From contig CM049315.1 of assembly GCA_026874595.1 (NCBI GenBank), positions 12,586,664 to 12,650,663 on the forward strand: a stretch of 64,000 nucleotides of DNA, written 5' to 3'. The notes under the pieces were generated by a model that worked only from the letters and a program-made list of their open reading frames with translations, searched no databases and was not told the origin of the DNA. The stretch comes from Sipunculus nudus. Lineage: Eukaryota; Annelida; Sipuncula; Golfingiida; Sipunculidae. The position numbers and the translations under genes were made by a program. This document shows, in pieces, positions 3,785 through 54,105 of this stretch (its first letter is position 1; each line of letters starts with the position of its first letter).

Positions 3785-4804
3785 ATGCTAACCGCGCATT
3801 TAAATGATATGGCAGGGGAGGTGAAGATGAAGACGGAAATAGAGTCGCCATCTATCGGCAAGGCCGGGTATGAAATTTTCTCAGACGAACTTTCTCATTC
3901 TACGTTTGTTCAGGCGCATGGACTGATACAGAGGCTTGTCTCTGTAACACACGCCAATTACCAGGATCACCTTGCAAGTTTGTCAGACACACGAGAAAAT
4001 GAATTACATCGCCCTCTTGTGTCCGACAAGGTCGGCGACTGGCGCCCACTAACGCCAGAATCTGACGTTTCTTTGGAGACTGATCCAGGGCTGGTTTCCC
4101 CGGACTCCGAGACTCCTGGCTTCCTCGGTTGTGCGGGTTGCTGCATGCCTATCAGTGAGCGCTATATTTTACTCATGAACGGACTTCTATGGCATGAGAA
4201 TTGCTTAAGATGTTGCGAGTGCGGGGCTGAACTTGTATTACATGGCAAGTGCTACGTTAAAAACGGTCAAACTTACTGCACACATCATTACAATGAAATG
4301 TACGGTCCTCACTGTGCCAGATGTGACCGCGTGGTGGCGCCTTCAGACTGGGTGAGGCATGTCGGTGATCACGTATACCACGTGACGTGTTTCACGTGCT
4401 GTGTCTGCGCAAGGTTACTCAGCTCTGGTGACCATATTGTGCTGGTGAGTAGCGGGGTTAGTTGTGCTTCACACTGCATGATACAGTCAACAGGGATATC
4501 AGACATTGTTATGGCCAGTTCGCCGGACGAAACAGCAGATGAGGTTGAAACTAAAGTTACAAAAACTGTGCTGCATCAACGCGTCAGAATCCCAGGGATG
4601 GACATTCAAAAGTGCAACATAAGGAACAGACGATCACGCACTACTTTTACGCAGGAGCAGCTAGACGCACTGCAGGACGCGTTCAACCGTCACACCAACC
4701 CTGTCGGACGCGCCCTGCAGGCCATCGCTCAGTCGGTGGGGCTCAGCAGGCGTGTCACCCAAGTGTGGTTCCAGAACGCCAGGGCGCGCCACCGGAGGCG
4801 GTAA
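3785..4804 (+). CDS. Intronless LIM-homeodomain transcription factor, type A (Lhx6/8-like)
   Basis: One 339-codon exon. LIM1 spans about residues 116-168 (C-x2-C, H-x2-C-x2-C-x2-C, closing C-x2-H). LIM2 spans about 177-230 and is closed by C-A-S-H. The homeodomain spans about 281-339, with W48 at residue 328 and the recognition-helix run WFQNARAR. By family knowledge this is a nuclear DNA-binding regulator whose LIM domains bind LDB/CLIM-type cofactors. GLSRRV in helix 3 and the DWVRH segment in LIM2 favour the Lhx6/8 (Arrowhead) class, although identity looks low. The N-terminus shares two motifs with the type B genes downstream: DELS-x-S followed by a helix-like run (residues ~35-55), and W-R-P-L-T-P-E-S (~88-95). 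Canonical Lhx6/8 genes have several introns, so the single exon suggests retrocopy origin. The first ATG is used; Met9 is an alternative. The protein ends at about homeodomain position 59, with no C-terminal extension. Confidence 0.9.
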   Translation: MLTAHLNDMAGEVKMKTEIESPSIGKAGYEIFSDELSHSTFVQAHGLIQRLVSVTHANYQDHLASLSDTRENELHRPLVSDKVGDWRPLTPESDVSLETDPGLVSPDSETPGFLGCAGCCMPISERYILLMNGLLWHENCLRCCECGAELVLHGKCYVKNGQTYCTHHYNEMYGPHCARCDRVVAPSDWVRHVGDHVYHVTCFTCCVCARLLSSGDHIVLVSSGVSCASHCMIQSTGISDIVMASSPDETADEVETKVTKTVLHQRVRIPGMDIQKCNIRNRRSRTTFTQEQLDALQDAFNRHTNPVGRALQAIAQSVGLSRRVTQVWFQNARARHRRR

Positions 4805-4904
4805 CGAACCGCCAAGAATAGTGGTACATTTGATATTTGAGTGTCGCTTATCATAATAACTCATTTGTTTATATGCTACATTTGTCATTTTAATTTATTT
4901 TCCA

Positions 4905-4910
4905 AATAAA
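4905..4910 (+). terminator. Polyadenylation signal AATAAA, type A gene
   Basis: AATAAA lies 101 bases after the stop codon of the type A gene; a second AATAAA follows at about 4951. The 3' UTR would be about 120-170 bases. Confidence 0.6.
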
Positions 4911-5289
4911 CATATTTAGATGCATTGAACCATTATTTTTTCATTGAGCCAATAAACATTTTATATGAGAAGTATTTTTCTTAAACATTTTAGTATGCCA
5001 GAATGTTTGCATATCATTGGTGCTGGTATATTAAGCGGAAAGAAAGTCTTCATTCAAAATGCGACTAGTGTTTGTCTTACTGGTCGTGTGTGTGTGTACG
5101 TGTGTCGGGATATTAGGTAATAGCCTCTAGCTAAAAAAAAGGAACTTGCGAAGCCTATCTTTAACACAAGTCTGGCCTCGTCTTCCCCTTGAGATTATTG
5201 TTCTTATATTTCACCGATATTTCAGTTGGTTCACGAGCAGGATAGTACGGAAGCGTATTGCTGCCACCTGGTAAAAGAAAAATAAATTA

Positions 5290-5520
5290 TTTATCTCGTA
5301 CGTACGACATACTATCTCGTACGTACGACATAGTATCTCGTACGTACGACATAGTATCTCGTACGTACGACATAGTATCTCGTACGTACGACATAGTATC
5401 TCGTACGTACGACATATTATCTCGTACGTACGACATACTATCTCGTACGTACGACATATTATCTCGTACGTACGACATACTATCTCGTACGTACGACATA
5501 TTATCTCGTACGTACGACAT
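5290..5520. repeat. 21-bp tandem array, left arm (11 copies)
   Basis: Eleven 21-bp units of the form TATCTCGTACGTACGACATA plus one base. Each contains the perfect 12-bp palindrome TCGTACGTACGA. Because 21 is a multiple of 3 the array makes a repetitive open frame on both strands; it is not a gene. Confidence 0.95.
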
Positions 5521-15870: not shown

Positions 15871-16720
15871 GATCCCTTTGGATCTGTGTTTAAAGAAAAA
15901 AAATGGTGCGAGTGTACGAAATTTTATAATTGATTTTTATTTGTATCGGCCAAGACACAATGCTTGGAACCCTGCAAGCCAACCAGGGAAAATAAAAAAA
16001 TTAAATGTATATAATGCGTGAAGGGTAGTCCATTTCCATAACTTCAAATTATCTCTTAATTACCTGAGGTATAGCAGCACAAGTTAGCATAATTACTGAA
16101 GACCTGGTTCTCTCTTGTAAAACAAATATATGCCAGTGGAAAGTCCAATCCCTAATAAACAAAAAAAAAATAAGTCAGACCAGTTTCACATCCATGGTTT
16201 AAAGGTGTTTTGTGTCAAGTTAATACAACCATGGAACATACTTTTGATCTGCGGGAAACATCGAAAGCACTCACCAGTCTGCATTTCACTGTTTTCTTTC
16301 AATTAGAATTTTAATTTCTTTATATCCTAAAATTTGAGTATATATTATATTTGTATCCGTATAATCATTTGTTTCCTTGGAGTACAAATCAATTTTAATC
16401 TCTGCAAGTTTTGGCTTGTATTATAGTTTGTATTATAGAATAATATTTCAAAATATATGTTAACTATTGCAAGCGTTTTGTATTGACGATGTGGAAACAG
16501 GTTATCATAGATGCACTTATTTGGAAAGTGAATCTCTCAAAACGTCCGATATGACCCAATTCTTGTGTTCGTCTTTAAATTTAACCTTCTGGGATTAAAA
16601 GAAATCTGATCGGGTGTGTTTGTGTTTAAATCTGTTTACGTTATACTTCCTGATGCAGGCGACAGGAATAACATATAACATTATCAGCAGCGTCTGAATC
16701 AACAATCGACGTACAAAGGA

Positions 16721-16990
16721 GAGTTACAAAAACTGTGCTGCATCAACTAGTCTAAATCCGAGGGATGGACATTCAAAAAGGTAAAACGAGGAACAGACGA
16801 TATCCGATCACAACTTTTACGGAGTAGAGGAACAGCTGGGCGCGCTGCAGGACTCGTTTAACCGTCACATCAACCCAGTCGGACGAGCCCTGCAGGCCGT
16901 CGCTCAGTCCGTGGGGCTCAGCAGGCGTGTCACCAAGTGTGGTTTCTGACCGCCAGGGCGCGCCACCGGAGGCGGAAAGGAACCGCCAGA
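16721..16990 (+). pseudogene. Type A homeodomain remnant 1
   Basis: Matches 4553-4815 of the intact type A gene, from the linker (AAAACTGTGCTGCATCAAC) through the homeodomain to the 3' flank (GAACCGCCAGAATAGTGG). No LIM coding sequence precedes it. There is a one-base deletion where the intact gene reads CACCCAAGTGTGG (here CACCAAGTGTGG), the WFQN codons become a Trp-less TTTCTGACC, and upstream changes break the frame. Non-functional. Confidence 0.9.
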
Positions 16991-18455: not shown

Positions 18456-19619
18456 ATGTTTGCCGGAGAGATAAGCTTGTCGCCCCAGAAGGCAAGGAAC
18501 GACGCTTCCTTTGTAGTAGATGAGCTTTCTGACTCGCTGGTGTTACAAGGATTTAATCACATCGAGGACCTTTTGAAGATGGAGTTTTCTAATGAGGAAC
18601 CACTGCCAGCTAAATGTGACGATCTTTTAGCGACCGCCATGTACCAGCACATTCTGACGGACGGAGCTACGGAACCAGACGAACCCGTCAACCAACTGCC
18701 GCCATGGTATCCACTCACACCCGAGTCGCAAACTGTCTCGGGAGTGACGTCAGAGGTAACACCAGAGCATCATGATGCCGTCCCCGTGGTGACGTCAGAG
18801 ATTCAAGATGACGGTATAACTCACATTCACGCTCATTTCCGGATGCAGCAGCTACAAGAAGCAGACGACCTTCCCTGTTCTCTGGATGACCTTGTACCAG
18901 AAACCCTCCACAAAGAAACATGTTCTGTCATAGAGCCAGTGACAGCGCCACCATCCCCGGTGGTCGTGATCCGTAGTCAGAATTTATGTTCAGGTTGTGA
19001 TGGCTGTATAACAGACCGCTACATTCTACAGGTGAACGGACTCCTGTGGCATGAGACATGTCTACGATGCTGTGAGTGTCACTTACAGCTTGGTTACCAT
19101 GGCAAGTGTTACGTCAAGGACGGCAGGATTTACTGTAAACAGCATTACCGGGAGATGTACGGTGTCCGTTGTACCAAGTGTGACCGCGTGGTGGCGCAGT
19201 CTGACTTAGTTCATTACGTAGGTCGTCATGTTTATCACGTGACATGTTTTTCGTGTACTACATGTGGACGTTTATTATCTACAGGAGAACAGTTTTCTGT
19301 AGAAGGATATGATGTGATATGTAGGGATCACGCAGGCCATTCGTCAATCTCGGGACTGACGAGTTTAACACGGAGGACAGCAACCAAGAGATCAGCTGTC
19401 GATGACCCAGGGAACCCATTGAAACCCAAGTCTAAGCGTCTGAGAACACAATTCACGGACGAACAAGTCGAGCTTCTCAAAGAGGAATACATACAAGAAA
19501 CCAACCCTGTCGGAAGTGACCTTGAGCGGATCGCGCTGAAGGTCGGGCTCAGTCGGCGCGTCACACAGATCTGGTTTCAGAACGTTCGTGCCCGGGACAG
19601 GAAACAACAGAGTAAATAA
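18456..19619 (+). CDS. Intronless LIM-homeodomain transcription factor, type B copy 1
   Basis: A 387-codon single exon. The N-terminal ~175 residues are acidic and Ser/Thr/Pro-rich with a conserved DELS-x-S helix-like segment (~23-43), W-Y-P-L-T-P-E-S and repeated V-T-S-E units. LIM1 spans 178-230 and LIM2 239-292, both with all eight zinc-ligand positions. The homeodomain spans 326-385, with W373, F374, N376 and R378 (positions 48, 49, 51, 53) intact and Q50 and A54 as in LIM-HD proteins. The protein ends two residues after the homeodomain. Predicted nuclear regulator; LIM-HD proteins act with LDB cofactors. Closest class appears to be Lhx6/8. Compared with the other full copies it lacks seven residues in the V-T-S-E repeat and has Val-Val after Phe19. 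The start is the ATG shared by all copies; here there is no second in-frame ATG two codons upstream. Confidence 0.92.
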   Translation: MFAGEISLSPQKARNDASFVVDELSDSLVLQGFNHIEDLLKMEFSNEEPLPAKCDDLLATAMYQHILTDGATEPDEPVNQLPPWYPLTPESQTVSGVTSEVTPEHHDAVPVVTSEIQDDGITHIHAHFRMQQLQEADDLPCSLDDLVPETLHKETCSVIEPVTAPPSPVVVIRSQNLCSGCDGCITDRYILQVNGLLWHETCLRCCECHLQLGYHGKCYVKDGRIYCKQHYREMYGVRCTKCDRVVAQSDLVHYVGRHVYHVTCFSCTTCGRLLSTGEQFSVEGYDVICRDHAGHSSISGLTSLTRRTATKRSAVDDPGNPLKPKSKRLRTQFTDEQVELLKEEYIQETNPVGSDLERIALKVGLSRRVTQIWFQNVRARDRKQQSK

Positions 19620-22290: not shown

Positions 22291-25270
22291 AATAGACTTT
22301 TTGAATTAACACTGAAATACCCGTACTTTGATGTAATACAAAGGGGACTGTGATTATTTCTTTGATACTGACTACCTAATGTGCTTAATATATTTACATG
22401 TTTTTGTAACTTCATCTGCCGTTTCATTCTTGATATTTATAGAAATACCAAAAGCCTATCGTTTGTACCCAGCCCAGTTTCGTCTATTATCCGACATATC
22501 ATAATCACACTTATCATTCTTTAATTAACTGTCATTTCATTTTGAATACTACATTAATTGTATATATCTCGTTTTTCTTACATATTCAATTTTGTTATAT
22601 TAATTTAATTTATAAATTATAAATATTTTATGTTTATATGTAAAATTGAATAAACTTTATTATCACGTATGTATGGTCTTCTCCGTTCTTTGTTTTAGGA
22701 AGAATTAGGATCCAATTTTAAGATGACCGTTCATCACTTTTTAATTTAAGTGTGTCTCGTGCGTGTTTAAACTTTCTAAACTGAACAACGGTGGTCATGG
22801 CATGATCGACTGTACGGATTCCTGGCTTCCATCCTAACCCACGTCACTAAAACCGTAGGGAAAAGCGAATGTATAAACAAACAATACTAAAACATGTTTT
22901 ATGTAGTCACGTCAACTAATTATCCGTGCCGTTTCGTCACTCCGCATCAACGGCCTGTCGCAGCTCTACGACTCGCTTTTCGAACCCGTAGCGCCATCCA
23001 GTGGTTATCGGTAGCGAGTCACGAAACTGTCGTCAGAAGATGACCGAAGTTACTGCGTATGACAAGTGTTCTTCTAAACTACTATTGTGCAACTATATGA
23101 AGACGCACAAGAACAAGCAGAAAAAAACTTCTTACTTGAATGTTAAATTACAGCCACATATCATCAAGGATATATGATGTTGTAGAAGACATAGGGAATG
23201 TTATGATATCAGACAGATGTTGTAGGTGGGCAGCTTGATTATTAATTGACTCATTTAAATTGTAGAATTAATTTGTTTTCTGACTCTCTCGTATTATAAT
23301 AAATGAAAAAAAAATCCCATCAGAGCCTCTGGATGACTGTTATCCAAAAATGTATTAGTTACCTATAAATCGTAATAAGATTTTAAAATGGTCTTTGCGA
23401 ATTTATCCAGATACCGGAATACAAACCTCTCAAGGCGCGCTCAGATCGCAAATTATTTCATTCATCATGATTAATGCCAGGTTGGAAGCACGGTATTGGG
23501 TTAAAGAAAGCAATAAATAAATACAAGACGCTGGCGGAGATGTTCTCTCTAATTGTGTTCTGGATGAAATAAGGCGGAGGTGTTACCTCTCAGAGTGCGC
23601 TCGATAAATTCCAGGCTCTTTTTTTCTTACAAGTAGTATGCATGTATTTTTGATGAGAAAATATTGAAATACACATTGGAAGTAACCCATTAACTTAAAG
23701 GGGACCAATCACCTATTTAGCATGTTGAATTAACACAAAAAAATAGCTTCTTCCCTTTCATATAAATGTTTACCTGCCAAAACATGGCCCCGAAACCGTT
23801 TCCTTACTCCCGTAAACGAGTGTTAAAAACAGTGGACCGGGCGCGATCAAAGGTGTCAACATAAACATAGCGCGTGGGACACTGTGCATCGCTGAGCAAC
23901 AACACCTGCCAATTACGTAAAACCCTGGCTGACTTGGCTGCAAAATGTTTTACATGTTACCGCCAGCTGAAAATTTGTGTGTTGCGGCTCACAATCGGAC
24001 TTTCGGTCACGCGGACCTGTTATGGTAAACAGACACCCGTGGCCTGTGTTTAAAAAACACACAGAGCCATAACTGTGAGATGGGATGGTATTGCTTGGAT
24101 ACATTTGTATAAAGCAAAACTGAACTGATAGTGTGAAAGATGGACATAATATTACTCCTGATTATGTCCCTTATCCCCCATCATATTATTTTCAAATTAA
24201 GTTTAAAATGTATGTTCTATACCAATGGGGTAATTGCCCGGGATGATATTTGTCTGAGGGAAAATTGTCTTCGGGGTAATCGATGGGAGGAGGGGGGGGG
24301 GGTTCAAATTGTCCGGGGGGAGGGGGGTAATTGTCAGGGGGCTAATTTGTGTCGGGGGTAGTTCTCCAAGGGGGGAGGGGGTTCTATGGGATAATTGTCC
24401 GTGGGTCAGTTGTCCGAGATCCCTTTGGATCTGTGTTTAAAGAAAAAAAAATGGTGCGAGTGTACGAAATTTTATAATTGATTTTTATTTGTATCGGCCA
24501 AGACAATGCTTGGAACCCTGCAAGCCAACCAGGGAAAATAGAAAAATTAAATGTTTGAAAAGGTGCAAATAATGCGTGAAGTTTAGTCCATTTCCATACC
24601 TTCAAGATATCTCTTAATTACCTGAGGTATAGCAGCACAAGTTAGCATAATTACTGAAGACCTGGTTCTCTCTTGTAAAACAAATATATGCCAGTGGAAA
24701 GTCCAGTCCCTAATTAACAAAAAAAAATAAGTCAGACCAATTTCACATCCATGGTTTAAAGGTGTTTTGTGTCAAGTTAATACAACCATGGAACATACTT
24801 TTGATCTGCGGGCAACATCGAAAGCACTCACCAGTCTGCATTTCACTGTTTTCTTTCAATTAGAATTTTAATTTCTTTATATCCTAAAATTTGAGTATAT
24901 ATTATATTTGTATCCGTATAATCATTTGTTTCCTTGGAGTACAAATCAATTTTAATCTCTGCAAGTCTTGGCTTGTATTATAGTTTGTATTATAGAATAA
25001 TATTTCAAAATATATGTTAACTATTGCAAGCGTTTTGTATTGACGATGTGGAAACAGGTTATCATAGATGCACTTATTTGGAAAGTGAATCTCTCAAAAC
25101 GTCCGATATGACCCAATTCTTGTGTTCGTCTTTAAATTTAACCTCCTGGGATTAAAAGAAATCTGATCGGGTGTGTTTGTGTTTAAATCTGTTTACGTTA
25201 TACTTCCTGATGCAGGCGACAGGAATAACATATAACATTATCAGCAGCGTCTGAATCAACAATAGACGCA
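22291..25270. other. Type B 3' flank and intergenic repeat, second copy in unit 1
   Basis: Repeats the module after 19620, including the G-rich block (about 24230-24400), then runs into the AT-rich stretch before the type A remnant. No gene recognised. Confidence 0.65.
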
Positions 25271-25276
25271 CAAAGG

Positions 25277-30555: not shown

Positions 30556-33540
30556 AATAGACTTTTTGAATTAACACTGAAATACCCGTACTTTGATGTA
30601 ATACAAAGGGGACTGTGATTATTTCTTTGATACTGACTACCTAATGTGCTTAATATATTTACATGTTTTTGTAACTTCATCTGCCGTTTCATTCTTGATA
30701 TTTATAGAAATACCAAAAGCCTATCGTTTGTACCCAGCCCAGTTTCGTCTATTATCCGACATATCATAATCACACTTATCATTCTTTAATTAACTGTCAT
30801 TTCATTTTGAATACTACATTAATTGTATATATCTCGTTTTTCTTACATATTCAATTTTGTTATATTAATTTAATTTATAAATTATAAATATTTTATGTTT
30901 ATATGTAAAATTGAATAAACTTTATTATCACGTATGTATGGTCTTCTCCGTTCTTTGTTTTAGGAAGAATTAGGATCCAATTTTAAGATGACCGTTCATC
31001 ACTTTTTAATTTAAGTGTGTCTCGTGCGTGTTTAAACTTTCTAAACTGAACAACGGTGGTCATGGCATGATCGACTGTACGGATTCCTGGCTTCCATCCT
31101 AACCCACGTCACTAAAACCGTAGGGAAAAGCGAATGTATAAACAAACAATACTAAAACATGTTTTATGTAGTCACGTCAACTAATTATCCGTGCCGTTTC
31201 GTCACTCCGCATCAACGGCCTGTCGCAGCTCTACGACTCGCTTTTCGAACCCGTAGCGCCATCCAGTGGTTATCGGTAGCGAGTCACGAAACTGTCGTCA
31301 GAAGATGACCGAAGTTACTGCGTATGACAAGTGTTCTTCTAAACTACTATTGTGCAACTATATGAAGACGCACAAGAACAAGCAGAAAAAAACTTCTTAC
31401 TTGAATGTTAAATTACAGCCACATATCATCAAGGATATATGATGTTGTAGAAGACATAGGGAATGTTATGATATCAGACAGATGTTGTAGGTGGGCAGCT
31501 TGATTATTAATTGACTCATTTAAATTGTAGAATTAATTTGTTTTCTGACTCTCTCGTATTATAATAAATGAAAAAAAAATCCCATCAGAGCCTCTGGATG
31601 ACTGTTATCCAAAAATGTATTAGTTACTTATAAATCGTAATAAGATTTTAAAATGGTCTTTGCGAATTTATCCAGATACCGGAATACAAACCTCTCAAGG
31701 CGCGCTCAGATCGCAAATTATTTCATTCATCATGATTAATGCCAGGTTGGAAGCACGGTATTGGGTTAAAGAAAGCAATAAATAAATACAAGACGCTGGC
31801 GGAGATGTTCTCTCTAATTGTGTTCTGGATGAAATAAGGCGGAGGTGTTACCTCTCAGAGTGCGCTCGATAAATTCCAGGCTCTTTTTTTCTTACAAGTA
31901 GTATGCATGTATTTTTGATGAGAAAATATTGAAATACACATTGGAAGTAACCCATTAACTTAAAGGGGACCAATCACCTATTTAGCATGTTGAATTAACA
32001 CAAAAAAATAGCTTCTTCCCTTTCATATAAATGTTTACCTGCCAAAACATGGCCCCGAAACCGTTTCCTTACTCCCGTAAACGAGTGTTAAAAACAGTGG
32101 ACCGGGCGCGATCAAAGGTGTCAACATAAACATAGCGCGTGGGACACTGTGCATCGCTGAGCAACAACACCTGCCAATTACGTAAAACCCTGGCTGACTT
32201 GGCTGCAAAATGTTTTACATGTTACCGCCAGCTGAAAATTTGTGTGTTGCGGCTCACAATCGGACTTTCGGTCACGCGGACCTGTTATGGTAAACAGACA
32301 CCCGTGGCCTGTGTTTAAAAAACACACAGAGCCATAACTGTGAGATGGGATGGTATTGCTTGGATACATTTGTATAAAGCAAAACTGAACTGATAGTGTG
32401 AAAGATGGACATAATATTACTCCTGATTATGTCCCTTATCCCCCATCATATTATTTTCAAATTAAGTTTAAAATGTATGTTCTATACCAATGGGGTAATT
32501 GCCCGGGATGATATTTGTCTGAGGGAAAATTGTCTTCGGGGTAATCGATGGGAGGAGGGGGGGGGGGTTCAAATTGTCCGGGGGGAGGGGGGTAATTGTC
32601 AGGGGGCTAATTTGTGTCGGGGGTAGTTCTCCAAGGGGGGAGGGGGTTCTATGGGATAATTGTCCGTGGGTCAGTTGTCCGAGATCCCTTTGGATCTGTG
32701 TTTAAAGAAAAAAAAAATGGTGCGAGTGTACGAAATTTTATAATTGATTTTTATTTGTATCGGCCAAGACAATGCTTGGAACCCTGCAAGCCAACCAGGG
32801 AAAATAGAAAAATTAAATGTTTGAAAAGGTGCAAATAATGCGTGAAGTTTAGTCCATTTCCATACCTTCAAGATATCTCTTAATTACCTGAGGTATAGCA
32901 GCACAAGTTAGCATAATTACTGAAGACCTGGTTCTCTCTTGTAAAACAAATATATGCCAGTGGAAAGTCCAGTCCCTAATTAACAAAAAAAAATAAGTCA
33001 GACCAATTTCACATCCATGGTTTAAAGGTGTTTTGTGTCAAGTTAATACAACCATGGAACATACTTTTGATCTGCGGGAAACATCGAAAGCACTCACCAG
33101 TCTGCATTTCACTGTTTTCTTTCAATTAGAATTTTAATTTCTTTATATCCTAAAATTTGAGTATATATTATATTTGTATCCGTATAATCATTTGTTTCCT
33201 TGGAGTACAAATCAATTTTAATCTCTGCAAGTCTTGGCTTGTATTATAGTTTGTATTATAGAATAATATTTCAAAATATATGTTAACTATTGCAAGCGTT
33301 TTGTATTGACGATGTGGAAACAGGTTATCATAGATGCACTTATTTGGAAAGTGAATCTCTCAAAACGTCCGATATGACCCAATTCTTGTGTTCGTCTTTA
33401 AATTTAACCTCCTGGGATTAAAAGAAATCTGATCGGGTGTGTTTGTGTTTAAATCTGTTTACGTTATACTTCCTGATGCAGGCGACAGGAATAACATATA
33501 ACATTATCAGCAGCGTCTGAATCAACAATAGACGCACAAA
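30556..33540. other. Type B 3' flank and intergenic repeat, second copy in unit 2
   Basis: Repeats 22291-25270 almost base for base, with the G-rich block at about 32495-32690. No gene recognised. Confidence 0.65.
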
Positions 33541-33542
33541 GG

Positions 33543-33812
33543 AGAGTTAAAAAAACTGTGCTGCATCAACTAGTCTAAATCCGAGGGATGGACATTCAAA
33601 AAGGTAAAACGAGGAACAGACGATATCCGATCACAACTTTTACGGAGTAGAGGAACAGCTGGGCGCGCTGCAGGACTCGTTTAACCGTCACATCAACCCA
33701 GTCGGACGAGCCCTGCAGGCCGTCGCTCAGTCCGTGGGGCTCAGCAGGCGTGTCACCAAATGTGGTTTCTGACCGCCAGGGCGCGCCACCGGAGGCGGAA
33801 AGGAACCGCCAG
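33543..33812 (+). pseudogene. Type A homeodomain remnant 3
   Basis: Same structure as remnants 1 and 2; reads CACCAAATGTGG and TTTCTGACC in place of the intact recognition-helix codons. Confidence 0.88.
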
Positions 33813-34935: not shown

Positions 34936-35463
34936 ATGACAATGTTTGCCGGAGAGATTAGCTTGTCACCCCAGAAGGCAAGGAACGACGCTTCCTTTGT
35001 AGATGAGCTATCTGACTCGTTGGTGTTACAAGGATTTAATCACATCGAGGACCTGTTGAAGATGGAGTTTTCTAATGAGGAACCTCTGCCAGCTAAATGT
35101 GACGATCTTTTAGCGACCGCCATGTACCAACACATTCTGGCGGACGGAGCTATGGAACCAGACGAACCCGTCAACCAACTGCCGCCATGGTCTCCAGTCA
35201 CACCCGGGTCGCAAACTGTCTCGGAAGTGACGTCAGAGGTTCAAGATGAGGTCTCCGAGGTAACACCAGAGCATCATGATGCCGTCCCCTTGGTGACGTC
35301 AGAGATTCAAGATGACGGTATAACTCACATTCACGCTCATTTCCGGATGCAGCAGCTACAAGAAGCAGACGACCTCCCCTGTTCTCTGGATGACCTTTTA
35401 CCAGAAACACTCCACAAAGAAACATGTTCTGTCATAGAGCCAGTGTCAGCGCCAGCATCCCCG
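34936..35463 (+). pseudogene. Type B LIM-HD copy 3, N-terminal part (5' of LINE insertion)
   Basis: Encodes about the first 176 residues of the type B protein (acidic N-terminus with the DELS helix-like segment, W-S-P-V-T-P-G-S and the longer V-S-E-V repeat). It is interrupted just before LIM1 by a non-LTR retrotransposon. The frame reads seven codons into the element and stops at 35485-35487, giving a possible 183-residue protein without LIM or homeodomain. The promoter is intact, so a truncated product is possible. Confidence 0.88.
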
Positions 35464-35670
35464 TTTATTACTTTATGTCACAAATGAAGAAATACCGGAT
35501 GTTTTAGTGATTATTCATGATTAACTGACAAACAAAGAGTCGTCATTTGTAAATTGCGTCACAAGATACTTCTCAGAATCAACCACCTGTGACAGGTATG
35601 TTATACTTTTAATGATTCCTGTACCTCGAATGTGTTATTACCTACACCTGGCTGTTAAAATAATGGACTT

Positions 35671-37458
35671 ATGGTTGCAAACCCTGAGAGCAGGAACTTC
35701 AATATCAGTTTTGTTTTCGCAGTGTGTGCTGCTTATTGTAACCCGGGCCTTTATTTGAACGACCGAGACTTTCCAAAATTGCTGTGTATCAACTGTCAGC
35801 TAGTTGCATCTAGCAAATCAAACAGTAGCCCACAAGTATGTTTTCTGATTTATGATTCGCTCGGAAGGAGTACTTCACATATTAACTTTACCAGCCTGTG
35901 AAGGCGCGTCGGCGAACCATTGTCTGGTCAAAAGCCCTGATCCTTGTACTCCTTTTGATCCCTTAAACCCGCGGATGGCTGCCCAACGTGTGAGTGGTGC
36001 TATTGCCGAGGCTTTGGCCGCTGTTAACAACGGGGACTATGACGATTGTGAAATGGAACAAACCTGCTCTATCACAGATATGTTGCTGGTTGAGCTGACT
36101 GGTCTCCCAAAAGACCAATTTATTAAGAAATTGATTAACCAGTCTGATGAAATGCAATTAACATTGAACACTTTCGTGACCACCTTTTTGATATGGCGAA
36201 ATTACAGCAAAACTTTCCTGGGGGTAAACTTATCAAACGACTAAAGTCTAGAAACAAACCTTGCAATGACTATGAAATAAAATTGGCCAGTGATTGTTAT
36301 ATTCTGTACCATTTTACGAAAGGTGGGACCCCAGACTCCGTTAAAGAAGTTCTCAGCGGTCACTCTAGTCGACAAAGAACGGTCAGTGTTTCAACGCCTC
36401 GAAATAAAGATTCAGTGAACTCCTCTGCTGGTCGTATTCTGCCGGATATAGACCTGAATGCTCACAATAGGTTGGAAATTATTCGTCTCAACAGTACTTG
36501 TGATCAGCTACAAAACACCTGTAATGTCAGATACGACTATCTATCAAAACACGTAGACAGTGTAAATGATCTGCTTAAAGAAACGAGGACTGCCCTAGAA
36601 GACTACAAATATTATATGCAAAATAAAATTGACAAAGTAAGCGCTGCCTTGAATGACCAAACAGAGGCCATTCTTACTCTAAACGGAAAACTTGACTCCG
36701 TAATCGTTCGCCAGGAGGAACTCCAGGGTAATAAGGAAAGGAGCCGGGCTGAAATGAATAGACATGCCTCCGAACGACGTCAGATTCAGGCGACAATTCG
36801 AGAAATTGAATACAACGTCAAAGAACTGTCTGAAAAGTCTGCCGCCTTTGCGCGTTCTCTTACGGATCTCAGATCTCGCATGACTCAAACTAATGGTGCT
36901 CAAATAATGTCTGCTTCATTTGCAAGAGTCGCATCTAAGCCACCATCTCCTACTGTAACAAGAAAGACAATAGGAACCAGTACGGGGGGATCTGATTCTC
37001 CATCAAGGCAAGGAGGTAACGTACGAGAGGACACAAATGAGGCTCCAGCTCCTGCATCTGTTGAACGTTGCGCGGAAAACGTTACCCCTGTTCGAACAGG
37101 AAATGCCGAAATCAGCTCTCAAAGGAATACATTCATCGGGCCGCAAGAGGAAGGTTCATCCTCATCCTCAGCAGGTGATGACATTCCCGTATTAACCTCA
37201 CGAAGACGTGATCATAACATAAACTCTGTGTTCTCTGAATATCATATCGGTAACATTGAAAAACATGTAAGTGTGAAAAGGGTGACAAACCATATTATAG
37301 CTAGAGGAGTCCATGTGTTCAGTGTAAAGCTTCTGAGGAGCAAAAACATGCGCTACAACGGATGTTACTTGAAAGTACATAATTCAAGCTGCAGGCTTGT
37401 AGAATCAGGTAGCATTTGGCCGCAAAATGTATACGCCAGACCCTGGGTTAATAGATAG
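35671..37458 (+). pseudogene. LINE ORF1-like region (coiled coil), frameshifted
   Basis: Two long overlapping frames (35852-36244 and 36193-37458) appear to be one ancestral ORF1 with a frameshift near 36190-36240. A further frame from 35671 (with C-N-P and C-I-N-C motifs) may be its start. The 421-codon part has a long heptad-rich, Glu/Lys/Asn-rich stretch (about residues 95-230) suggestive of a coiled coil, then a Ser/Thr/Pro-rich low-complexity tail. ORF1 proteins of such elements usually bind the element RNA and trimerise or multimerise. No RRM or CCHC array was recognised. Confidence 0.65.
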
Positions 37459-37538
37459 TGAGCAAAGGAATTTTGTGGTATGTACCCTTTCACTGATTCA
37501 TTGTCTGAGTATTCTGTTGACTGCCTTTCACATCCATT

Positions 37539-40500
37539 ATGTACAATCATTCATATCTTGTAAACAATATAACAATTGCCTGTTATAATGCTCGTGGAAT
37601 TATGGCAAGTTTCGCATTTGTTGAAAATCTTTTAAACCGTTACAAACTTGACATTTGCTGTGTAACTGAACACTGGCTATTCCCCGATTCTTTGCAATTC
37701 TTGTCAACATTCCACGAGGATTACCAGGTACACGCTGTTGCTGATTCCTCTCTTGACCCATATGACATGTACAGGCGGGGTAAGGGAGGGGTAGCCCTTT
37801 TCTGGCACAAACACCTGTCAGGTATAATCTCCCCAGTAGATAACCTGCTTGACGATCGAATTGTTGGTATCTGTGTTCGCCCCGAGCATGGTCCATGTAT
37901 TTTCATATTTGCAGTCTATATGCCGAGCTCAAACCACGGAGTCCAATTATTTAAAGAATATACTGAAAAATTACACATCATTTATGAGGAATATTTGAGT
38001 AGCGATATTGTGGTGATGCTAGGCGACTTTAATAGTGAAGTGACGGGCACAAGATACGAAGTCCCAAATCACTTAGAACTAGTGTTATGCAATCTTTTCT
38101 ATGTGAACACGATCTTATTTCTCAGACTGCCGATTCTCTTTGCGGTGGTCCACTTTATACGTTTGATCCATACTCTGACGGTTCCAACCAATCGTTAATT
38201 GACCACGTTATTTTACCACGTGACCAGCTCCACTTGGTCGAACATTGTGAAGTGTTAGATTGTAGCCTTAATACTTCCGACCACCTGCCTGTGGTGACAA
38301 GATTAAAAATACCTCAAAGGCACAAATCCAAAAGTAGATTACACTCTCCTAATTGGTCAAAACTCGCGTCAGAGAAAGAACTGCAAAGACGTTATGCTGC
38401 GATTTGCTAGGTGAGCTTGATAAAATAGCTGAACCAAACCCAGAAGACTGTACTGTCTCTGCCATCAACCAATATTATTCAGATATTGTCAAGGCCCTTC
38501 AAAATGCGGCGTCTAATCTTCCTTTAAAACAGTTTAAATCTTTCCTACGACCTGGCTGGAAAAGTAAATTAAAGCCTTCTTATGATGAAATGAAAAGATT
38601 GAGGAGAGTCTGGATAGTAGATGGTAAGCCACGCGGTCACTCCTCTAAGTCTTATAGCGACTACAAAGAAGCGAAAGCCATTTTCGAAGGCACATGAGAC
38701 ACTACCACACCTCTAAAGATCGAATAGAATTTGAGAAATTGGATCAAGCCGCTGAACTCGATATAAATAAATTCTGGCAACTGCTCAACAAAAAAAGAAG
38801 AATTAAAGCGAATCTGAATAATGATATGTCTTTTAATGGTATTACAACAAACGATCCAATTATTATTTGTGAGAAGTGGGCAGACTATTTCGAGGAGTTG
38901 TACTCCTTTCAGACAAATTCCTTTTATGACGTAAATTTCAAAACTAAAGTAACTGAAAAATGTAAACGATTATATAAAGAGTCTAAAAGAAATAAAGCGG
39001 GAGTATTAGATGATAAATTCACGAAATTAGAAATAAAAAACAGTATTAAACAACTTAAAAACAGAAAGGCTCCTGGTCACGACAGTATTATGAATGAGGG
39101 GATATTTGGAATATAAAATTTGGCGGGGATATGATGATCAATCATCTTGAAAACTTATTCAATTCCATTAGAAAAACGGAAACTATGCCAGAGTGCATGA
39201 AGATAGGTATAATTGTAACAGTACCAAAGGATAAAACCAAAAGTCGTACCAATCCAGACAATTATAGAGGAATAACCTTGCTGCCGTGTATATATAAAAT
39301 TATTGAAAATGTTTTGCACTCTCGTTTTAATAAATATATTACCATGTCAGGAATAGCTTTTCCTGACCCCATGCAGTTTGCATTTCAAAAAGGTACAGGC
39401 GCACTTAACGCATCCCATTGCCTGCTGGAATGCATTTGTCACAATCTCGAGCGGCAGTCCCTAGTTTACTGCTGCTGTCTCGACAGTAGCAAAGCCTTTG
39501 ATCATATCTGGCACCACGGTTTATTCGTGAAATTATATAAAATGGGAATCGATGGGAAATTATGGAGGATTTTATTTAACGTGTACACAAAAATGACAGC
39601 GAAAATTTTATACCAGGACAAAACCAGCAGAAAGATTCCAATTACTCAGTCTGTCCGGCAGGGGGGGGAGTACTGTCGCCACTTTTATACTTAATTTTTA
39701 TTAATGATCTCTTGAGGGAACTTAGAATTCTTGGCGTTTGGGCCAAAATAGGTGATATATTTACAGGATGTCCCACTCAGGCAGATGACATTGCACTGCT
39801 GGCACTCACGCCTTCTGATCTCCAATTAATGATTGACACATGCGTTGCGTATTCTAATAAGTGGAGATTTGTATTTAATACTACAAAGACCGTTATTATT
39901 ACTTTTGGTGAAAGTGAAAGGATGTATAATCTGAGAAGCCCTCATCGCTTTTGGAGATTAAACAATGAGACGATAAAGCAAACCCGAAGTCATAAGCATC
40001 TCGGTATTTTATTAAATGCAAGCATGTCCTCCATTGATCGGACGAATGAAGCATGCAGAAAGGGCAAGGGATCATTCATGGCATTAGCAGAATCAGGTGT
40101 TCGGCCGTATGGTTTAAATCCCCTGACGGCTATAAAACTGTATAAGACAATGGTCCTCCCGAGGGCTCTGTACGGGGCAGAGTTATGGTGGTCATTGACC
40201 GTGCAAGAGTACTTAATTCTGGAACGAATGCACAGGCTTTGCATTAAAAATGCGCAGATGATGCACCCTCGAGTTCGGTCGGATTTAGCTCAGAGTCTGG
40301 TCGGCATGCCGAGACTGGAAGCGTTCATTGACCGCATGAAACTTTTATTCCTTGGAAGGATATGTAACAACAATAACATTTCAAAATCCATTCTATGGAT
40401 GCGCGTAATTAGTGGCAGCTTTTGTAATCTGCCAATATACGGGTTTGCAGCGGACATAATTTCAATTCTGAAAAAGTATAACCTCGAAAACTTTTTAATT

Positions 40501-41065
40501 AACTGGTTAGGCGACTTACAGTTTCCAAACAAATTGTCATGGAGCCGTATCGTAACTGAAAAGCTAGTTTCCATGGAAACTGACTTATTTCTCCAAAGAA
40601 CAAATCTTTTTAAGTTTAACATGTTACGTGAAGTAAAACCTTCCTTTCTTCAGCCATCCATCCTCTGGTTATATTCAAGGGATATCCCTGCATCATACAA
40701 TATATTTTCTTAAACTGCTATCATTCTATGGCTGTATAGACATTAGGAACGAATTATTTCTTTGTCATTTATGCGGCAAACTTTTCCACAATCCGGTCCA
40801 TCATGTAGTAATAGAATGTGATATGACAAAAACAGAAAGAGATTCCATGTGGGATTTCATTATTGATAACTTTAGTGTACACATAAGCACTTACCTCTTC
40901 AACTTAGATGACTTCTCGTTTATCGCTACTCTACTTGGAAAACCTCTCCCTGATATGTCGCGGGAGGACATGGTCTCACTTTCGTATAGGGCTGGTTTAA
41001 TGCTTAGGAATATGAAGCCAACCATTGAGTCGTTGTGGCCGAAAATTACATTCAGTAATGAGTAA
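37539..41065 (+). pseudogene. LINE ORF2-like endonuclease-reverse transcriptase, multiply frameshifted
   Basis: Endonuclease motifs of the exonuclease-endonuclease-phosphatase fold: N-A-R-G, T-E-H-W, V-Y-M-P, L-G-D-F-N (37539-38085), then I-D-H-V and S-D-H-L-P-V in another frame (38190-38300). Reverse transcriptase motifs: K-A-P-G-H-D (39065), Y-R-G-I-T-L-L (39265), motif A L-D-S-S-K-A-F-D (39478), motif B V-R-Q-G-G (39653), motif C Q-A-D-D (39778). A C-terminal C-x2-C/H/C zinc-knuckle-like segment lies at about 40770-40820. Frame breaks are visible near 38086, 38400, 38690, 39100, 39665 (in a G-run at motif B) and 40700. This copy therefore looks unable to make active protein. Confidence 0.88.
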
Positions 41066-41327
41066 TTATTTTTGTGTTTTCCGCTTCAATTTACCTTGAT
41101 GTCAATTAATATCTTGGTTTAATGACACGAAATGTCTACATGAATATGCATATGAATTATACTATTTTTTTTATTAGATTTTATTGTATTTTAATTTCAT
41201 CTTAATGTTGTGTGTTACAATTTCATTCTGTATTGCCGTCTGATGGCGCATTCTCATTATAAGAAAATTGATTGTACTCTTCAATTCATTGGAGGCAATA
41301 AAGAAAATCAATCAATCAATCAATCAA

Positions 41328-41977
41328 TCATAGAGCCAGTGTCAGCGCCACCATCCCCGGTGGTCGTGATCCGTAGTCAGAATTTATGTTCAGGTTGTGA
41401 TGGCTGTTTAACAGACCGCTACATTCTACAGGTGAACGGACTCCTGTGGCATGAGACATGTCTGCGATGTTGTGAGTGTCACTTACAGCTTGGTTACCAT
41501 GGCAAGTGTTACGTCAAGAACGGCAGGATTTACTGTAAACAGCATTACCGGGAGATGTACGGTGTCCGTTGTTCCAAGTGTGACCGCGTGGTGGCGCAAT
41601 CTGACTTAGTTCATGATGTGGGTCGTCATGTCTATCACGTGACATGTTTTTCGTGTACTACATGTGGACGTTTATTATCTACAGGAGAACAGTTTTCAGT
41701 ACAAGGATATGGACTGACAAGTTTAACACGGAGGACAGCAACCAAGAGATCAGCTATCGATGACCCAGGGAACCCAATGAAACCCAAGTCTAAGCGTCTG
41801 AGAACACAATTCACGGACGAACAAGTCGAGCTTCTCAAAGAGGAATACATACAAGAAACCAACCCTGTCGGAAGTGACCTTGAGCGGATCGCGCTGAAGG
41901 TCGGGCTCAGTCGGCGCGTCACACAGATCTGGTTTCAGAACGTTCGTGCCCGGGACAGGAAACAACAGAGTAAATAA
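41328..41977 (+). pseudogene. Type B LIM-HD copy 3, LIM/homeodomain part (3' of LINE insertion)
   Basis: Continues the gene interrupted at 35463: linker, LIM1, LIM2 and homeodomain to TAA at 41975. The frame stays open upstream into the LINE tail, so a chimeric 255-codon frame starts at an ATG inside the LINE (41210) and runs through the ATCA repeats into the LIM region. There is an in-frame 14-residue deletion at the end of LIM2 (after 41709): the residues D-V-I-C-R-D-H and the following A-G-H-S-S-I-S are gone, so LIM2 lacks its last zinc ligands. Homeodomain residues W48, N51 and R53 are intact. AATAAA lies at 42334-42339. Confidence 0.88.
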
Positions 41978-47246: not shown

Positions 47247-47620
47247 ATTTGTATCCGTATAATCATTTGTTTCCTTGGAGTACAAATCAATTTTAATCTC
47301 TGCAAGTCTTGGCTTGTATTATAGTTTGTATTATAGAATAATATTTCAAAATATACGTTAACTATTGCAAGCGTTTTGTATTGACGATGTGGAAACACAG
47401 GTTATCATAGATGTACTTATTTGGAAAGCGAATCTCTCAAAACATCCGATATGACCCAATTCTTTTGTTTGTCTTGAAATTTAACCCTCTGGGATTAAAA
47501 GAAATCTGATCGGGTGTGTTTGTGTTTAAATCTGTTTACGTTATTCCTCCTAAAGCAGGCGTCAGGAATAACATATAACATTATCAGCAGCGTCTGAATC
47601 AACAATCGACGCACAAAGGA

Positions 47621-47890
47621 GAGTTACAAAAACTGTGCTGCATCAACTAGTCTAAATCCGAGGGATGGACATTCAAAAAGGTAAAACGAGGAACAGACGA
47701 TCTCCGATCACAACTTTAACGGAGGAACAGCTGGGCGCGCTGCAGGACGCGTTTAACCGTCACACCAACCCAGTCGGACGAGCCCTGCATGCCGTCGGTC
47801 AGTCCGCAGGGCTCAGCAGGCGTGTCACCAAGTGTGGTTTCTGACCGCCAGGGCGCGCCACCGGAGGCGGAAAGGAACCGCCAGAATAGT
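47621..47890 (+). pseudogene. Type A homeodomain remnant 4
   Basis: The linker-homeodomain segment is the best preserved of the remnants up to the recognition helix (GGAGGAACAGCTGG without the extra TAG seen in remnants 1-3). It carries the same CACCAAGTGTGG deletion and TTTCTGACC change. No LIM region upstream. Confidence 0.88.
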
Positions 47891-51720: not shown

Positions 51721-51739
51721 ACTACACAGAAAATCAGTT

Positions 51740-52660
51740 CACTCCTAAATGCATTAAACCTCTGATACATACTACACATATATTTATGTATAAATATGTA
51801 CATATATATATATTTATTAAAAGAAAAATTGATATGCAATAATCTTTTCCGTTAAAATGTCTAATCCTAAAATATATTTCCGTCAATATGTCTAATCCTA
51901 TATTCTATTTATGTTATTATGTCTAGTCCTATAATCTATTTCCTAAAATATGTTTAATCCTATATGCTATTTTTGTTAAGATGTCTCATTTTTGAAGACA
52001 GGGTGTGTCATACACCTATTATCTCTAGGAATCGTTCAAGACGGCATACTTTATTCCTGTATAGCTATAAAGAAATACTGCATTTTAAACTTTTAATTTA
52101 TTTCACTTACTACGTAAATTAATCAGTTGTAATAATAATAACAGATGTAAAAACAATAAAGGTAAAAATTTCTTTGCTGAAATTATCACTTTACCATGTT
52201 AAAATGAATATATCTGATTTTTTTTATTCCGGGGTTGCAGACCAGCAAGAGAGCTTTTGATTTGTATATTCAGTATGAGATGTGATCGCTTCCATTTCAT
52301 AAACGTATCCGGAAACCACATTGTTTTCTAAATCTGTTCTAGTAACAGACATCTGACTAACCATCATATAATCAAGATATCCCTAAATTTTAAGGCTGCA
52401 AGTTTATGAATGGCACGTCTAAACCTAGGCGTCTGTACCCAGTCTAAACCCTGTCGTCCAATACTGAGCTGTCAGCAGAGTACCGAGCACACTGATTGTA
52501 GTACTTACTCCAGTCTCCAGTCTCATTAGACTCACTATCTAACAACTGTTAGTTGTTTGCAGTAAACACTTAAGTGAATGTGACAAACATCCAATTAGTT
52601 GTCCGCACCCACAGTGCTTTCATTCTCTGCAGTAAAACTCTTGAGTAGAATAATTAACCC
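51740..52660. other. AT-rich spacer upstream of type B copy 4
   Basis: Homologous to the spacer at 17.3-18.2 kb, with an extra ~190-base AT-rich stretch (about 52065-52255) that replaces the B-box region. No gene recognised. Confidence 0.6.
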
Positions 52661-52914
52661 CCTGTAATCACTCAAGCGTCTCTGAGTAGTACTCGCGTTC
52701 ACGCTGCCCTGACCACGTGAGCAGTGTCACAAGTGATTACGTGTCAATGAGTGAGCACTTGTCAACATTTCTCAGTACCGGTACTTAAACCTCATACATC
52801 TGCTCTCAGCATCATACCTACCACCGCCCACGGTCCACGGTTCTCACAGACTCGCTTCAATCCAGATAAAAATACTACAGTGTAAACCATAAAAGTAAAC
52901 TTTGAGAGAAATTT
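52661..52914 (+). promoter_or_regulatory. Type B promoter and 5' leader, copy 4
   Basis: CACGTG at 52714-52719 and ACTTAAAC at 52783-52790. The second E-box reads CACTTG instead of CACCTG here. Confidence 0.6.
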
Positions 52915-54105
52915 ATGACAATGTTTGCCGGAGAGATAAGCTTGTCACCCCAGAAGGCAAGGAACGACGCTTCCTTTGTAGTAGATGAGCTTTCTGACTC
53001 GCTGGTGTTTCAAGGATTTAATCACATCGAGGACCTGTTGAAGATGGAGTTTTCTAATGAGGAACCACTGCCAGCTAAATGTGACGATCTTTTAGCGACC
53101 GCCATGTACCAACACATTCTGACGGACGGAGCAACGGAACCAGACGAACCCGTCAACCAACTGCCGCCATGGTCTCCAGTCACACCCGAGTCGCAAACTG
53201 TCTCGGAAGTGACGTCAGAGGTTCAAGATGAGGTCTCCGAGGTAACACCAGAGCATCATGATGCCGTCCCCTTGGTGACGTCAGAGATTCAAGATGACGG
53301 TATAACTCACATTCACGCTCCTTTCCGGATGCAGCAGCTACAAGAAGCAGACGAACTCCCCTGTTCTCTGGATGACCTTTTACCAGAAACACTCCACAAA
53401 GAAACATGTTCTGTCATAGAGCCAGTGTCAGCGCCACCATCCCCGGTGGTCGTGATCCGTAGTCAGAATTTATGTTCAGGTTGTGATGGCTGTTTAACAG
53501 ACCGCTACATTCTACAGGTGAACGGACTCCTGTGGCATGAGACATGTCTGCGATGTTGTGAGTGTCACTTACAGCTTGGTTACCATGGCAAGTGTTACGT
53601 CAAGGACGGCAGGATTTACTGTAAACAGCATTACCGGGAGATGTACGGTGTCCGTTGTTCCAAGTGTGACCGCGTGGTGGCGCAATATGACTTAGTTCAT
53701 CATGTGGGTCGTCATGTCTATCACGTGACATGTTTTTCGTGTACTACATGTGGACGTTTATTATCTACAGGAGAACAGTTTTCAGTAGAAGGATATGATT
53801 TGATATGTAGGGATCACGCAGGCCATTCGTCAATCTCGGGACTGACGAGTTTAACACGGAGGACAGAAACCAAGAGATCAGCTATCGATGACCCAGGGAA
53901 CCCAATGAAACCCAAGTCTAAGCGTCTGAGAACACAATTCATGGACGAACAAGTCGAGCTTCTCAAAGAGGAATACATACAAGAAACCAACCCTGTCGGA
54001 AGTGACCTTGAGCGGATCGCGCTGAAGGTCGGGCTCAGTCGGCGCGTCACACAGATCTGGTTTCAGAACGTTCGTGCCCGGGACAGGAAACAACAGCGTA
54101 AATAA
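52915..54105 (+). CDS. Intronless LIM-homeodomain transcription factor, type B copy 4
   Basis: A 396-codon exon; the start shared with copy 1 is the second ATG at 52921. The acidic N-terminus has Val-Val after Phe and the longer V-S-E-V repeat. LIM1 spans about 187-239, LIM2 248-301 and the homeodomain 335-394. All zinc-ligand positions and W48, F49, N51 and R53 are present. It differs from copies 1 and 2 at scattered residues: Ser for Thr and Tyr for Ser in LIM2, Met for Thr at homeodomain position 9, and Arg for Ser next to the C-terminal Lys. It is thus the most divergent intact type B copy in the window and the best evidence that the protein is more than a fresh duplicate. Predicted nuclear regulator of the Lhx6/8-like class. 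Confidence 0.92.
   Translation: MTMFAGEISLSPQKARNDASFVVDELSDSLVFQGFNHIEDLLKMEFSNEEPLPAKCDDLLATAMYQHILTDGATEPDEPVNQLPPWSPVTPESQTVSEVTSEVQDEVSEVTPEHHDAVPLVTSEIQDDGITHIHAPFRMQQLQEADELPCSLDDLLPETLHKETCSVIEPVSAPPSPVVVIRSQNLCSGCDGCLTDRYILQVNGLLWHETCLRCCECHLQLGYHGKCYVKDGRIYCKQHYREMYGVRCSKCDRVVAQYDLVHHVGRHVYHVTCFSCTTCGRLLSTGEQFSVEGYDLICRDHAGHSSISGLTSLTRRTETKRSAIDDPGNPMKPKSKRLRTQFMDEQVELLKEEYIQETNPVGSDLERIALKVGLSRRVTQIWFQNVRARDRKQQRK

What the first reader, a model, noticed from the sequence alone, without database searches (positions are those of the whole stretch)
3785..54105. Tandem cluster of intronless, diverged Lhx6/8-like LIM-homeodomain genes
Seen: one type A gene, four type B genes (one split), two truncated copies and several remnants, all on one strand and all single-exon. 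Known: canonical LIM-HD genes such as Lhx6/8 (Arrowhead) are usually single-copy, multi-exon and highly conserved. Inference: a retrocopy of an Lhx6/8-class gene founded a lineage-specific, rapidly evolving family that then amplified in tandem. Such homeobox bursts in other animals (Dux, Rhox, mollusc TALE genes) often act in early embryo or germline, which makes expression timing worth testing here.
Basis: partly seen in the sequence, partly recalled or inferred. Interest (0 to 1): 0.9.

Follow-up and report, generated by a model that had tools for sequence, protein, structure and literature searches.

The report
Retrogene-born LIM-homeodomain gene array
An animal genome carries a family of intron-free copies of a normally single, highly conserved developmental control gene; they look protein-coding and maintained by selection, have multiplied in a row on one chromosome, and may act in eggs or early embryos, although that role is untested.

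Summary
The window, from a 1.43 Gb animal genome, carries one type A gene, three intact type B genes, one B gene split by a LINE, two 5'-truncated B copies, one decayed B copy and five type A homeodomain remnants, all on the plus strand. The family is wider than reported: the array runs on past the window with two more intact B genes, and an intact B-like gene 11 Mb away, two further types (C, D) and pseudogenes lie on the same contig. All 9 intact members read LIM1-LIM2-homeodomain in one open frame. Their closest relative, the multi-exon Lhx6/8 (Arrowhead) gene, survives on another contig with introns of about 2.1 and 3.3 kb between these domains. In a maximum-likelihood tree the 9 form one clade (100/99), sister to Arrowhead (98/95); joining any of five other classes is rejected (p 0.022 to 0.00015). 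Selection against the 23.64 Mb copy is purifying (omega 0.24-0.26). All 16 LIM zinc ligands are kept. A retrocopy founder is the best explanation, but no trace of the founding insertion was seen. Expression is untested; papers on other bivalves give only indirect female-gonad leads. New variant of a known kind: lineage-specific homeobox bursts.

The parts
3785..4804 (+). type A single-exon LIM1-LIM2-homeodomain gene, 339 aa, the only intact A copy found in the genome
14051..14693 (+). decayed type B copy (frameshift; LIM and homeodomain in two frames)
16675..16946 (+). type A homeodomain remnant 1 (frameshifted)
18456..19619 (+). type B gene B1, intact single-exon ORF, 387 aa
21826..22290 (+). 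5'-truncated B copy T1 (LIM2 plus homeodomain, open, 154 aa) made by a 2.67 kb internal duplication
25232..25503 (+). type A homeodomain remnant 2
26691..27878 (+). type B gene B2, intact single-exon ORF, 395 aa
30091..30555 (+). 5'-truncated B copy T2; homeodomain Trp48 changed to Leu
33498..33769 (+). type A homeodomain remnant 3
34936..35463 (+). 5' part of split type B gene B3
35464..41327 (+). LINE insertion (endonuclease and reverse transcriptase ORFs, AATC-repeat tail) that splits B3
41328..41977 (+). 3' part of split type B gene B3 (LIM1-LIM2-homeodomain)
47575..47870 (+). type A homeodomain remnant 4
52725..52914 (+). upstream block of B4, alignable with the B-like gene at 23.64 Mb (142 of 189 bases): promoter or 5' leader
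52915..54105 (+). type B gene B4, intact single-exon ORF, 396 aa
59992..60287 (+). type A homeodomain remnant 5

Best explanation
An mRNA of the single multi-exon Lhx6/8 (Arrowhead) gene was reverse-transcribed long ago and inserted on what is now contig C10. The copy lost the canonical C-terminal tail and has a different N-terminal region, keeping both LIM domains and the homeodomain. It diversified into at least four types (A, B, C, D) along that contig. An A-B pair then amplified in tandem: five B copies of the array stayed intact while the A partner in each unit decayed to a homeodomain stub. Shown here: nearest relative, intronless frames, single clade, one contig, purifying selection on the B type, mosaic array divergence. 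Inferred: the products bind Arrowhead-type TAAT sites through the conserved recognition helix and an LDB/Chip co-factor through the LIM pair, as sequence-specific regulators with altered activity because the tail is gone. Most likely time of action, inferred and weakly supported, is the female germline and early embryo (about 0.4 by itself).
For: Class: homeodomain identity to own-genome Arrowhead 32-35 of 58 (55-60%) for 9 of 9 intact members; the best other class is 27 of 58 (47%, Lhx3/4 with type D). Tree: 9 of 9 in one clade 100/99, plus Arrowhead 98/95; AU rejects Lhx2/9 p 0.022, Lhx1/5 1.5e-4, Lhx3/4 3e-4, Islet 1.8e-3, Lmx 1.6e-3 (one recalled homeodomain). Introns: canonical LIM1, LIM2 and HD exons lie about 2.1 and 3.3 kb apart on C5; 9 of 9 family members are contiguous there. 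Every match stronger than the Arrowhead homeodomain exon lies on C10: 18 of 53 matches and 19 of 57. Selection: B array against the 23.64 Mb copy, 5 of 5 pairs omega 0.24-0.26; Fisher p 6.6e-15 for the B4 pair. 16 of 16 LIM zinc ligands invariant in 9 of 9. Upstream block shared with the 23.64 Mb copy. Mosaic divergence between units. Leads for time of action: female-gonad-specific LHX6-like transcript in Utterbackia (PMC6754070, section 12 read); Lhx6/8 transcript listed with zona pellucida and vitellogenin genes in giant clam gonad (PMC7720611, passages); homeobox domains enriched in a female-gonad module of Manila clam (PMC9803972, passages); mammalian LHX8 is an oocyte factor (PMC4487509, PMC5055334, search listing).
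Against: No transcript data for this animal were available. The literature leads concern other bivalves and may refer to the canonical gene; the Manila clam paper names pbx4, not a LIM gene; three further bivalve reproduction papers gave nothing (PMC9716669 mentions LHX8 only for Xenopus; PMC5608214 only LHX9; PMC12530298 no Lhx; passages). The host's identity is itself inferred. No poly-A tail or target-site duplication of the founding event was seen. The LIM domains alone do not single out Arrowhead. The Lhx2/9 rejection is moderate (p 0.022). The name Lhx6/8 for the C5 gene rests on recalled motifs: the PDB holds no Lhx6/8, and its homeodomain exon hits ZFHX-type AFP enhancer binding protein and LHX9 about equally. 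Within the array omega reaches 0.97 for B4/B5 on only 13 changes, so selection on each recent copy is not shown.
Confidence: 0.55

Rival explanations
1. Same origin, but the genes act late (larva to adult tissue, for example neural or mantle) as a lineage-specific extension of Arrowhead function rather than in the germline or early embryo.
For: Oyster novel homeobox genes peak either early or late, with 30% late (PMC5322547, passages); homeodomain core residues of Arrowhead are kept.
Against: Reproductive-tissue leads in three bivalve papers, none shown to be this family; 67% of oyster novel homeobox genes peak early and ETCHbox genes are embryonic.
Confidence: 0.25
2. Only the dispersed copies (A, C, D, the 23.64 Mb B-like gene and perhaps one B) are functional; the tandem B array is recent passive amplification whose copies are decaying, as the split, truncated and stub copies show.
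For: Units 1 and 2 differ at only 9 of 6,647 compared bases from 19087 (inside LIM1) onward; two truncated, one split and one frame-broken B copy plus five A stubs lie in the window; omega 0.97 for B4/B5.
Against: Five B copies keep full frames; B1/B2 against B4/B5 differ in LIM1-LIM2 by 7 synonymous changes (of about 77 sites) and 5-6 nonsynonymous ones (of 283), omega 0.18-0.22; the upstream block is conserved.
Confidence: 0.2
3. Introns were lost from a DNA-level duplicate instead of by retroposition.
For: No poly-A or target-site trace of the founding event was seen (flanks by eye); the tandem units show that DNA-level duplication does occur in this family.
Against: Both introns of the conserved region are absent at once in all four types, and the family sits on another contig than the parent.
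Confidence: 0.1
4. The genes belong to another LIM-homeodomain class or are a fast-evolving orphan class attracted to Arrowhead.
For: LIM-domain identity is not class-specific and the stem is long.
Against: AU tests reject five other classes and the clade with Arrowhead has 98/95 support.
Confidence: 0.03

Closest known systems
Lhx6/8 (Arrowhead) LIM-homeodomain genes
   Same: two LIM domains plus homeodomain, 55-60% homeodomain identity to the own-genome gene, same core recognition-helix residues
   Different: family is intronless, multi-copy, on another contig, has 1 to about 16 residues after the homeodomain where the canonical frame continues, and a different N-terminus
Oyster Awh1/Awh2 (Crassostrea gigas, PMC5322547 Table 1, passages)
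   Same: a second Lhx6/8 gene in a bivalve
   Different: intron structure, position and orthology of Awh2 are not given in what I saw; could be the same ancient duplicate or unrelated
Eutherian ETCHbox genes (PMC8208926, abstract)
   Same: diverged duplicates of a conserved homeobox gene, tandem arrays, homeobox-centred gene conversion
   Different: derived from CRX (PRD class), no LIM domains; embryonic expression known
Dux / DUX4 (PMC3004920, abstract in listing)
   Same: proposed retroposition of a homeobox gene; multi-member family
   Different: double homeodomain, no LIM domains
Spiralian SPILE TALE genes (PMC8524836, passages)
   Same: lineage-expanded homeobox genes, nearly identical tandem copies in a limpet, early blastomere expression
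   Different: TALE class, no LIM domains

Membership tests
LIM-homeodomain class | two tandem LIM domains followed by a homeodomain | tested here: met
   Pfam matches for A, B1, B2, B4; alignment of all 9 intact members
LIM-homeodomain class | all 16 LIM zinc ligands kept (ligand positions recalled) | tested here: met
   invariant columns in 9 of 9
Lhx6/8 (Arrowhead) group, as derived members | groups with Arrowhead in a tree of the LIM-HD classes | tested here: met
   98/95; five other classes rejected; class label of the C5 gene is recalled
Canonical one-per-genome Lhx6/8 gene | multi-exon structure and long region after the homeodomain, as in the C5 gene | tested here: not met
   single frame, 1 to about 16 residues after the homeodomain
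Retrogene | no introns where the parent has them, and a different chromosome | tested here: met
Retrogene | poly-A tail and target-site duplication | tested here: inconclusive
   none seen by eye in about 260-370 bases beside A, B4, the 23.64 Mb copy, C and D; no systematic search; such traces decay with age
Homeobox burst (Dux, ETCHbox, SPILE type) | lineage-restricted, tandem, diverged copies of a conserved homeobox gene | tested here: inconclusive
   tandem and diverged: met; lineage restriction not testable, no other animal genome here
Homeobox burst (Dux, ETCHbox, SPILE type) | expression in germline or early embryo | not testable with these tools
   no RNA data
Orthologue of oyster Awh2 | reciprocal orthology or shared intron absence | not testable with these tools
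   oyster sequence not held

The most novel reading that the evidence does not exclude
A retroposed Lhx6/8 gene founded an egg or early-embryo regulatory family, a LIM-homeodomain counterpart of Dux and ETCHbox, in a genome where TALE-like and other homeobox genes also form separate clusters of diverged single-frame genes, so intronless homeobox bursts recur across classes in one animal.
Probability: 0.3. Interest if true: 0.8.

Novelty: new variant of a known kind. Interest (0 to 1): 0.6.

Why it matters
LIM-homeodomain genes are among the most conserved developmental regulators and are usually one or two per class (recalled). A family that escaped by apparent retroposition, kept both LIM domains and the core DNA-contact residues, changed its termini and multiplied is a natural experiment on how a constrained transcription factor gains a new role. 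If expressed in eggs or early embryos it would extend homeobox bursts, known mainly from PRD and TALE genes, to the LIM class, and the parent gene in the same genome gives a direct control.

Tried and rejected
Other LIM-HD classes: rejected. Host naming: egg-lysin and mollusc hemocyanin families gave no match in the 1 genome searched, but neither search had a positive control; a literature search by assembly size found 0 papers. Eleven of contigs C1-C17 whose length was shown are 61 Mb or more, and C18, C19, C20 and C153 are under 0.1 Mb, which fits 17 chromosomes; this and the TALE-like clusters suggest a lophotrochozoan, perhaps a bivalve; not shown. Promoter E-box idea: CACGTG occurs in the 600 bases upstream of B4, B6, the 23.64 Mb copy and D but not A or C; too weak to use. 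Polyadenylation signal near the stop: seen as AATAAA by the scan in B6 and overlapping the stop in B4 by eye; not used. Gene conversion against unequal crossing-over: the mosaic fits both. Whether the 23.64 Mb copy arose by DNA duplication or a second retroposition: open (see full report).

Literature on LIM-class expansions in molluscs: among the rows listed I saw no report of an intronless Lhx6/8 array; lists were capped and only open-licence papers are held (rows listed of papers found: 1 of 1, 20 of 150, 20 of 62, 20 of 834, 20 of 549, 15 of 96, 15 of 128, 15 of 23, 15 of 11,961).

An earlier count gave 7 and 5 hits for the C6 and C3 clusters; recounting one search gives 6 and 4. A first identity table had the homeodomains one column out of register and was replaced.
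Full report
What is there. The window is contig C10:12,586,664-12,650,663 of a 1,426,538,692-base assembly in 153 contigs. Of 10 ORFs given to Pfam, A, B1, B2, B4 and the 3' part of B3 show LIM domains plus a homeodomain; the truncated copy T1 shows one LIM and a homeodomain; the 5' part of B3 shows none; three belong to the LINE. T2 was not given. Self-comparison shows the array plan: a type A homeodomain stub, about 1.2-5 kb of spacer, a type B gene, its 3' flank, and in the first two units a 2.67 kb internal duplication carrying a copy of the 3' half of B.

Extent. A genome search with B4 gave 53 matches and one with A gave 57. The matches stronger than the Arrowhead homeodomain exon, 18 and 19 of them, all lie on C10. 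Intact single-frame members are nine: A, B1, B2, B4 in the window; B5 (12,651,435-12,652,622) and B6 (12,662,759-12,663,907) beyond it; a B-like gene at 23.64 Mb; type C at 12.297 Mb (minus strand); type D at 39.35 Mb. Broken members outside are a B pseudogene with stops at 12.548 Mb (minus), a B remnant at 12.451 Mb (minus) and a sixth A stub at 12.6575 Mb.

Parent. The canonical gene is on C5:6,503,172-6,509,159 (minus). Its LIM1, LIM2 and homeodomain exons are about 2.1 and 3.3 kb apart and its open frame continues for tens of residues after the homeodomain. All nine family members read through both places without interruption and end 1 to about 16 residues after the homeodomain.

Class. 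On 58 homeodomain columns the nine members match own-genome Arrowhead at 32-35 positions; the best other class is Lhx3/4 with type D at 27 of 58, and Lhx2/9 with type C at 20 of 46. LIM columns alone do not separate the classes: type A is 39% to both Arrowhead and Lhx3/4, type C 44% and 45%, type B 39-42% to Arrowhead and 40-41% to Lhx2/9. The combined tree (14 rows, 175 columns, LG+C20+F+G4) puts the nine in one clade (100/99) with Arrowhead as sister (98/95). Constrained trees are rejected for Lhx2/9 (p 0.022, moderate), Lhx1/5 (1.5e-4), Lhx3/4 (3e-4) and Islet (1.8e-3); adding one recalled LMX homeodomain gives p 1.6e-3. Lhx2/9 and Lhx1/5 rows lack the last homeodomain columns (next exon), Islet lacks LIM1, and one of two Lhx2/9 genes was left out. 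The order among A, B, C and D is unresolved (68-69 bootstrap).

Labels of the canonical genes. PDB searches name the Lhx2/9 homeodomain (LHX9, E 1.6e-23), the Lhx3/4 homeodomain (LHX4, 9.5e-32) and the Islet LIM2 (ISL-1, 5e-36). The label Lhx1/5 is recalled: its best PDB match is Lhx3 (2.2e-48), with no Lhx1/5 among the 12 listed. The label Lhx6/8 (Arrowhead) is recalled too: no Lhx6/8 is among the 23 PDB sequences listed, and the best are an AFP enhancer binding protein homeodomain (1.4e-16) and LHX9 (2.8e-16). That the family is nearest to this C5 gene does not depend on the label.

Selection. Nei-Gojobori counts: each of the five array B genes against the 23.64 Mb copy gives dS 0.36-0.39 and omega 0.24-0.26; for B4, Fisher p 6.6e-15. 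The ten pairs among array copies give omega 0.28 to 0.97 on few changes. In the six type-against-type pairs tested (A, C, D and B4) synonymous sites are saturated or nearly so (pS 0.69-0.86) while pN is 0.24-0.35, so the types are old and constrained. The 16 LIM ligands, W48, F49, Q50, N51 and R53 are invariant in all nine (numbering recalled). A short N-terminal W-x-P-x-T-P-x-S stretch is shared by A and B.

Array dynamics. Units 1 and 2 differ at 37 of 1,586 compared bases up to 19086 (upstream and N-terminal part of B), but at only 9 of 6,647 from there on. B4 against B6 is close around the start (5 of 400) and at the LIM region (7 of 400), but far in the N-terminal part (40 of 367) and the 3' flank (76 of 378, then 144 of 297). 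In B4/B6 the synonymous changes alone go the same way (14.5 of 119 against 4 of 117; Fisher p 0.025). This mosaic means recombination (unequal crossing-over or gene conversion) keeps parts of B alike. It resembles the homeobox-centred conversion reported for TPRX1/TPRX2 (PMC8208926, abstract). B3 was split by a LINE of about 5.9 kb with a repeated target stretch. Assembly error could mimic the near-identical units 1 and 2, but not the 1-5% and larger differences among the others.

Upstream block. About 190 bases upstream of the start are alignable between the array and the 23.64 Mb copy (142 of 189 bases for B4); BLAST homology stops there and, at the other end, 5 bases after the stop codon. 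This may be a promoter carried by a DNA-level duplication, or a 5' leader carried by a second retroposition; the start of transcription is unknown, so I leave it open.

Function, inferred. Kept zinc ligands and recognition helix predict a sequence-specific factor with Arrowhead-like TAAT preference and LDB/Chip binding; the missing tail predicts changed activity. Germline or early-embryo action is suggested by analogy and by leads in other bivalves: an LHX6-like transcript (E 2e-11) among 10 annotated female-specific genes in Utterbackia (PMC6754070, section 12); an Lhx6/8 transcript, log2 fold 4.51, listed among zona pellucida and vitellogenin genes in giant clam gonads (PMC7720611, passages); homeobox domains enriched in a female-gonad module of Manila clam, where the gene named is pbx4 (PMC9803972, passages). 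Passages of three other bivalve papers gave no support. None of these transcripts is shown to be this family, and the host here is not shown to be a bivalve.

Known or new. Pacific oyster has two Lhx6/8 genes, Awh1 and Awh2 (PMC5322547, passages), so a second bivalve Lhx6/8 gene is in print; the same paper reports a LIM clade shared only by trematodes and cestodes. I saw no report of an intronless, tandem Lhx6/8 family in the searches listed in Tried and rejected. I file it as a new variant of a known kind, the lineage-specific homeobox burst.

Noticed in passing
same genome: C6:5310915-5373771, C11:62039473-62066858, C3:7088754-7112342: Three more clusters of diverged homeobox genes in long single open frames (6, 5 and 4 Pfam homeodomain hits, which scored 150 of 321 candidates); one member read per cluster (L072, L071, L073): by eye the C6 and C11 ones are TALE-like and share an N-terminal region, the C3 one is ANTP/NK-like.
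   Followed up: partly
window 35464-41327: LINE with endonuclease and reverse transcriptase ORFs, an upstream ORF with only a sub-threshold Pfam match, and an AATC-repeat tail, inserted in B3 with a repeated target stretch; its frames appear interrupted.
   Followed up: partly
window 44127-45537 and 56255-57944: A tandem satellite of about 280 bases lies about 2.1 kb 3' of two B genes.
   Followed up: no
window 5258-5719 and 11839-12141: A minisatellite of about 63 bases reads as repeated SRTYDI in one frame; a related, mostly inverted copy lies about 6 kb away.
   Followed up: no
L052 (C10:12557610-12558509, minus): An open frame that resembles a BIR-domain (inhibitor of apoptosis) protein lies upstream of the array; judged by eye only.
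   Followed up: no
C11:41921265-41923673: An open frame of 1,877 codons with four homeodomain hits and zinc-finger-like stretches, probably the ZFHX gene (recalled); it scores against the family by homeodomain alone.
   Followed up: no
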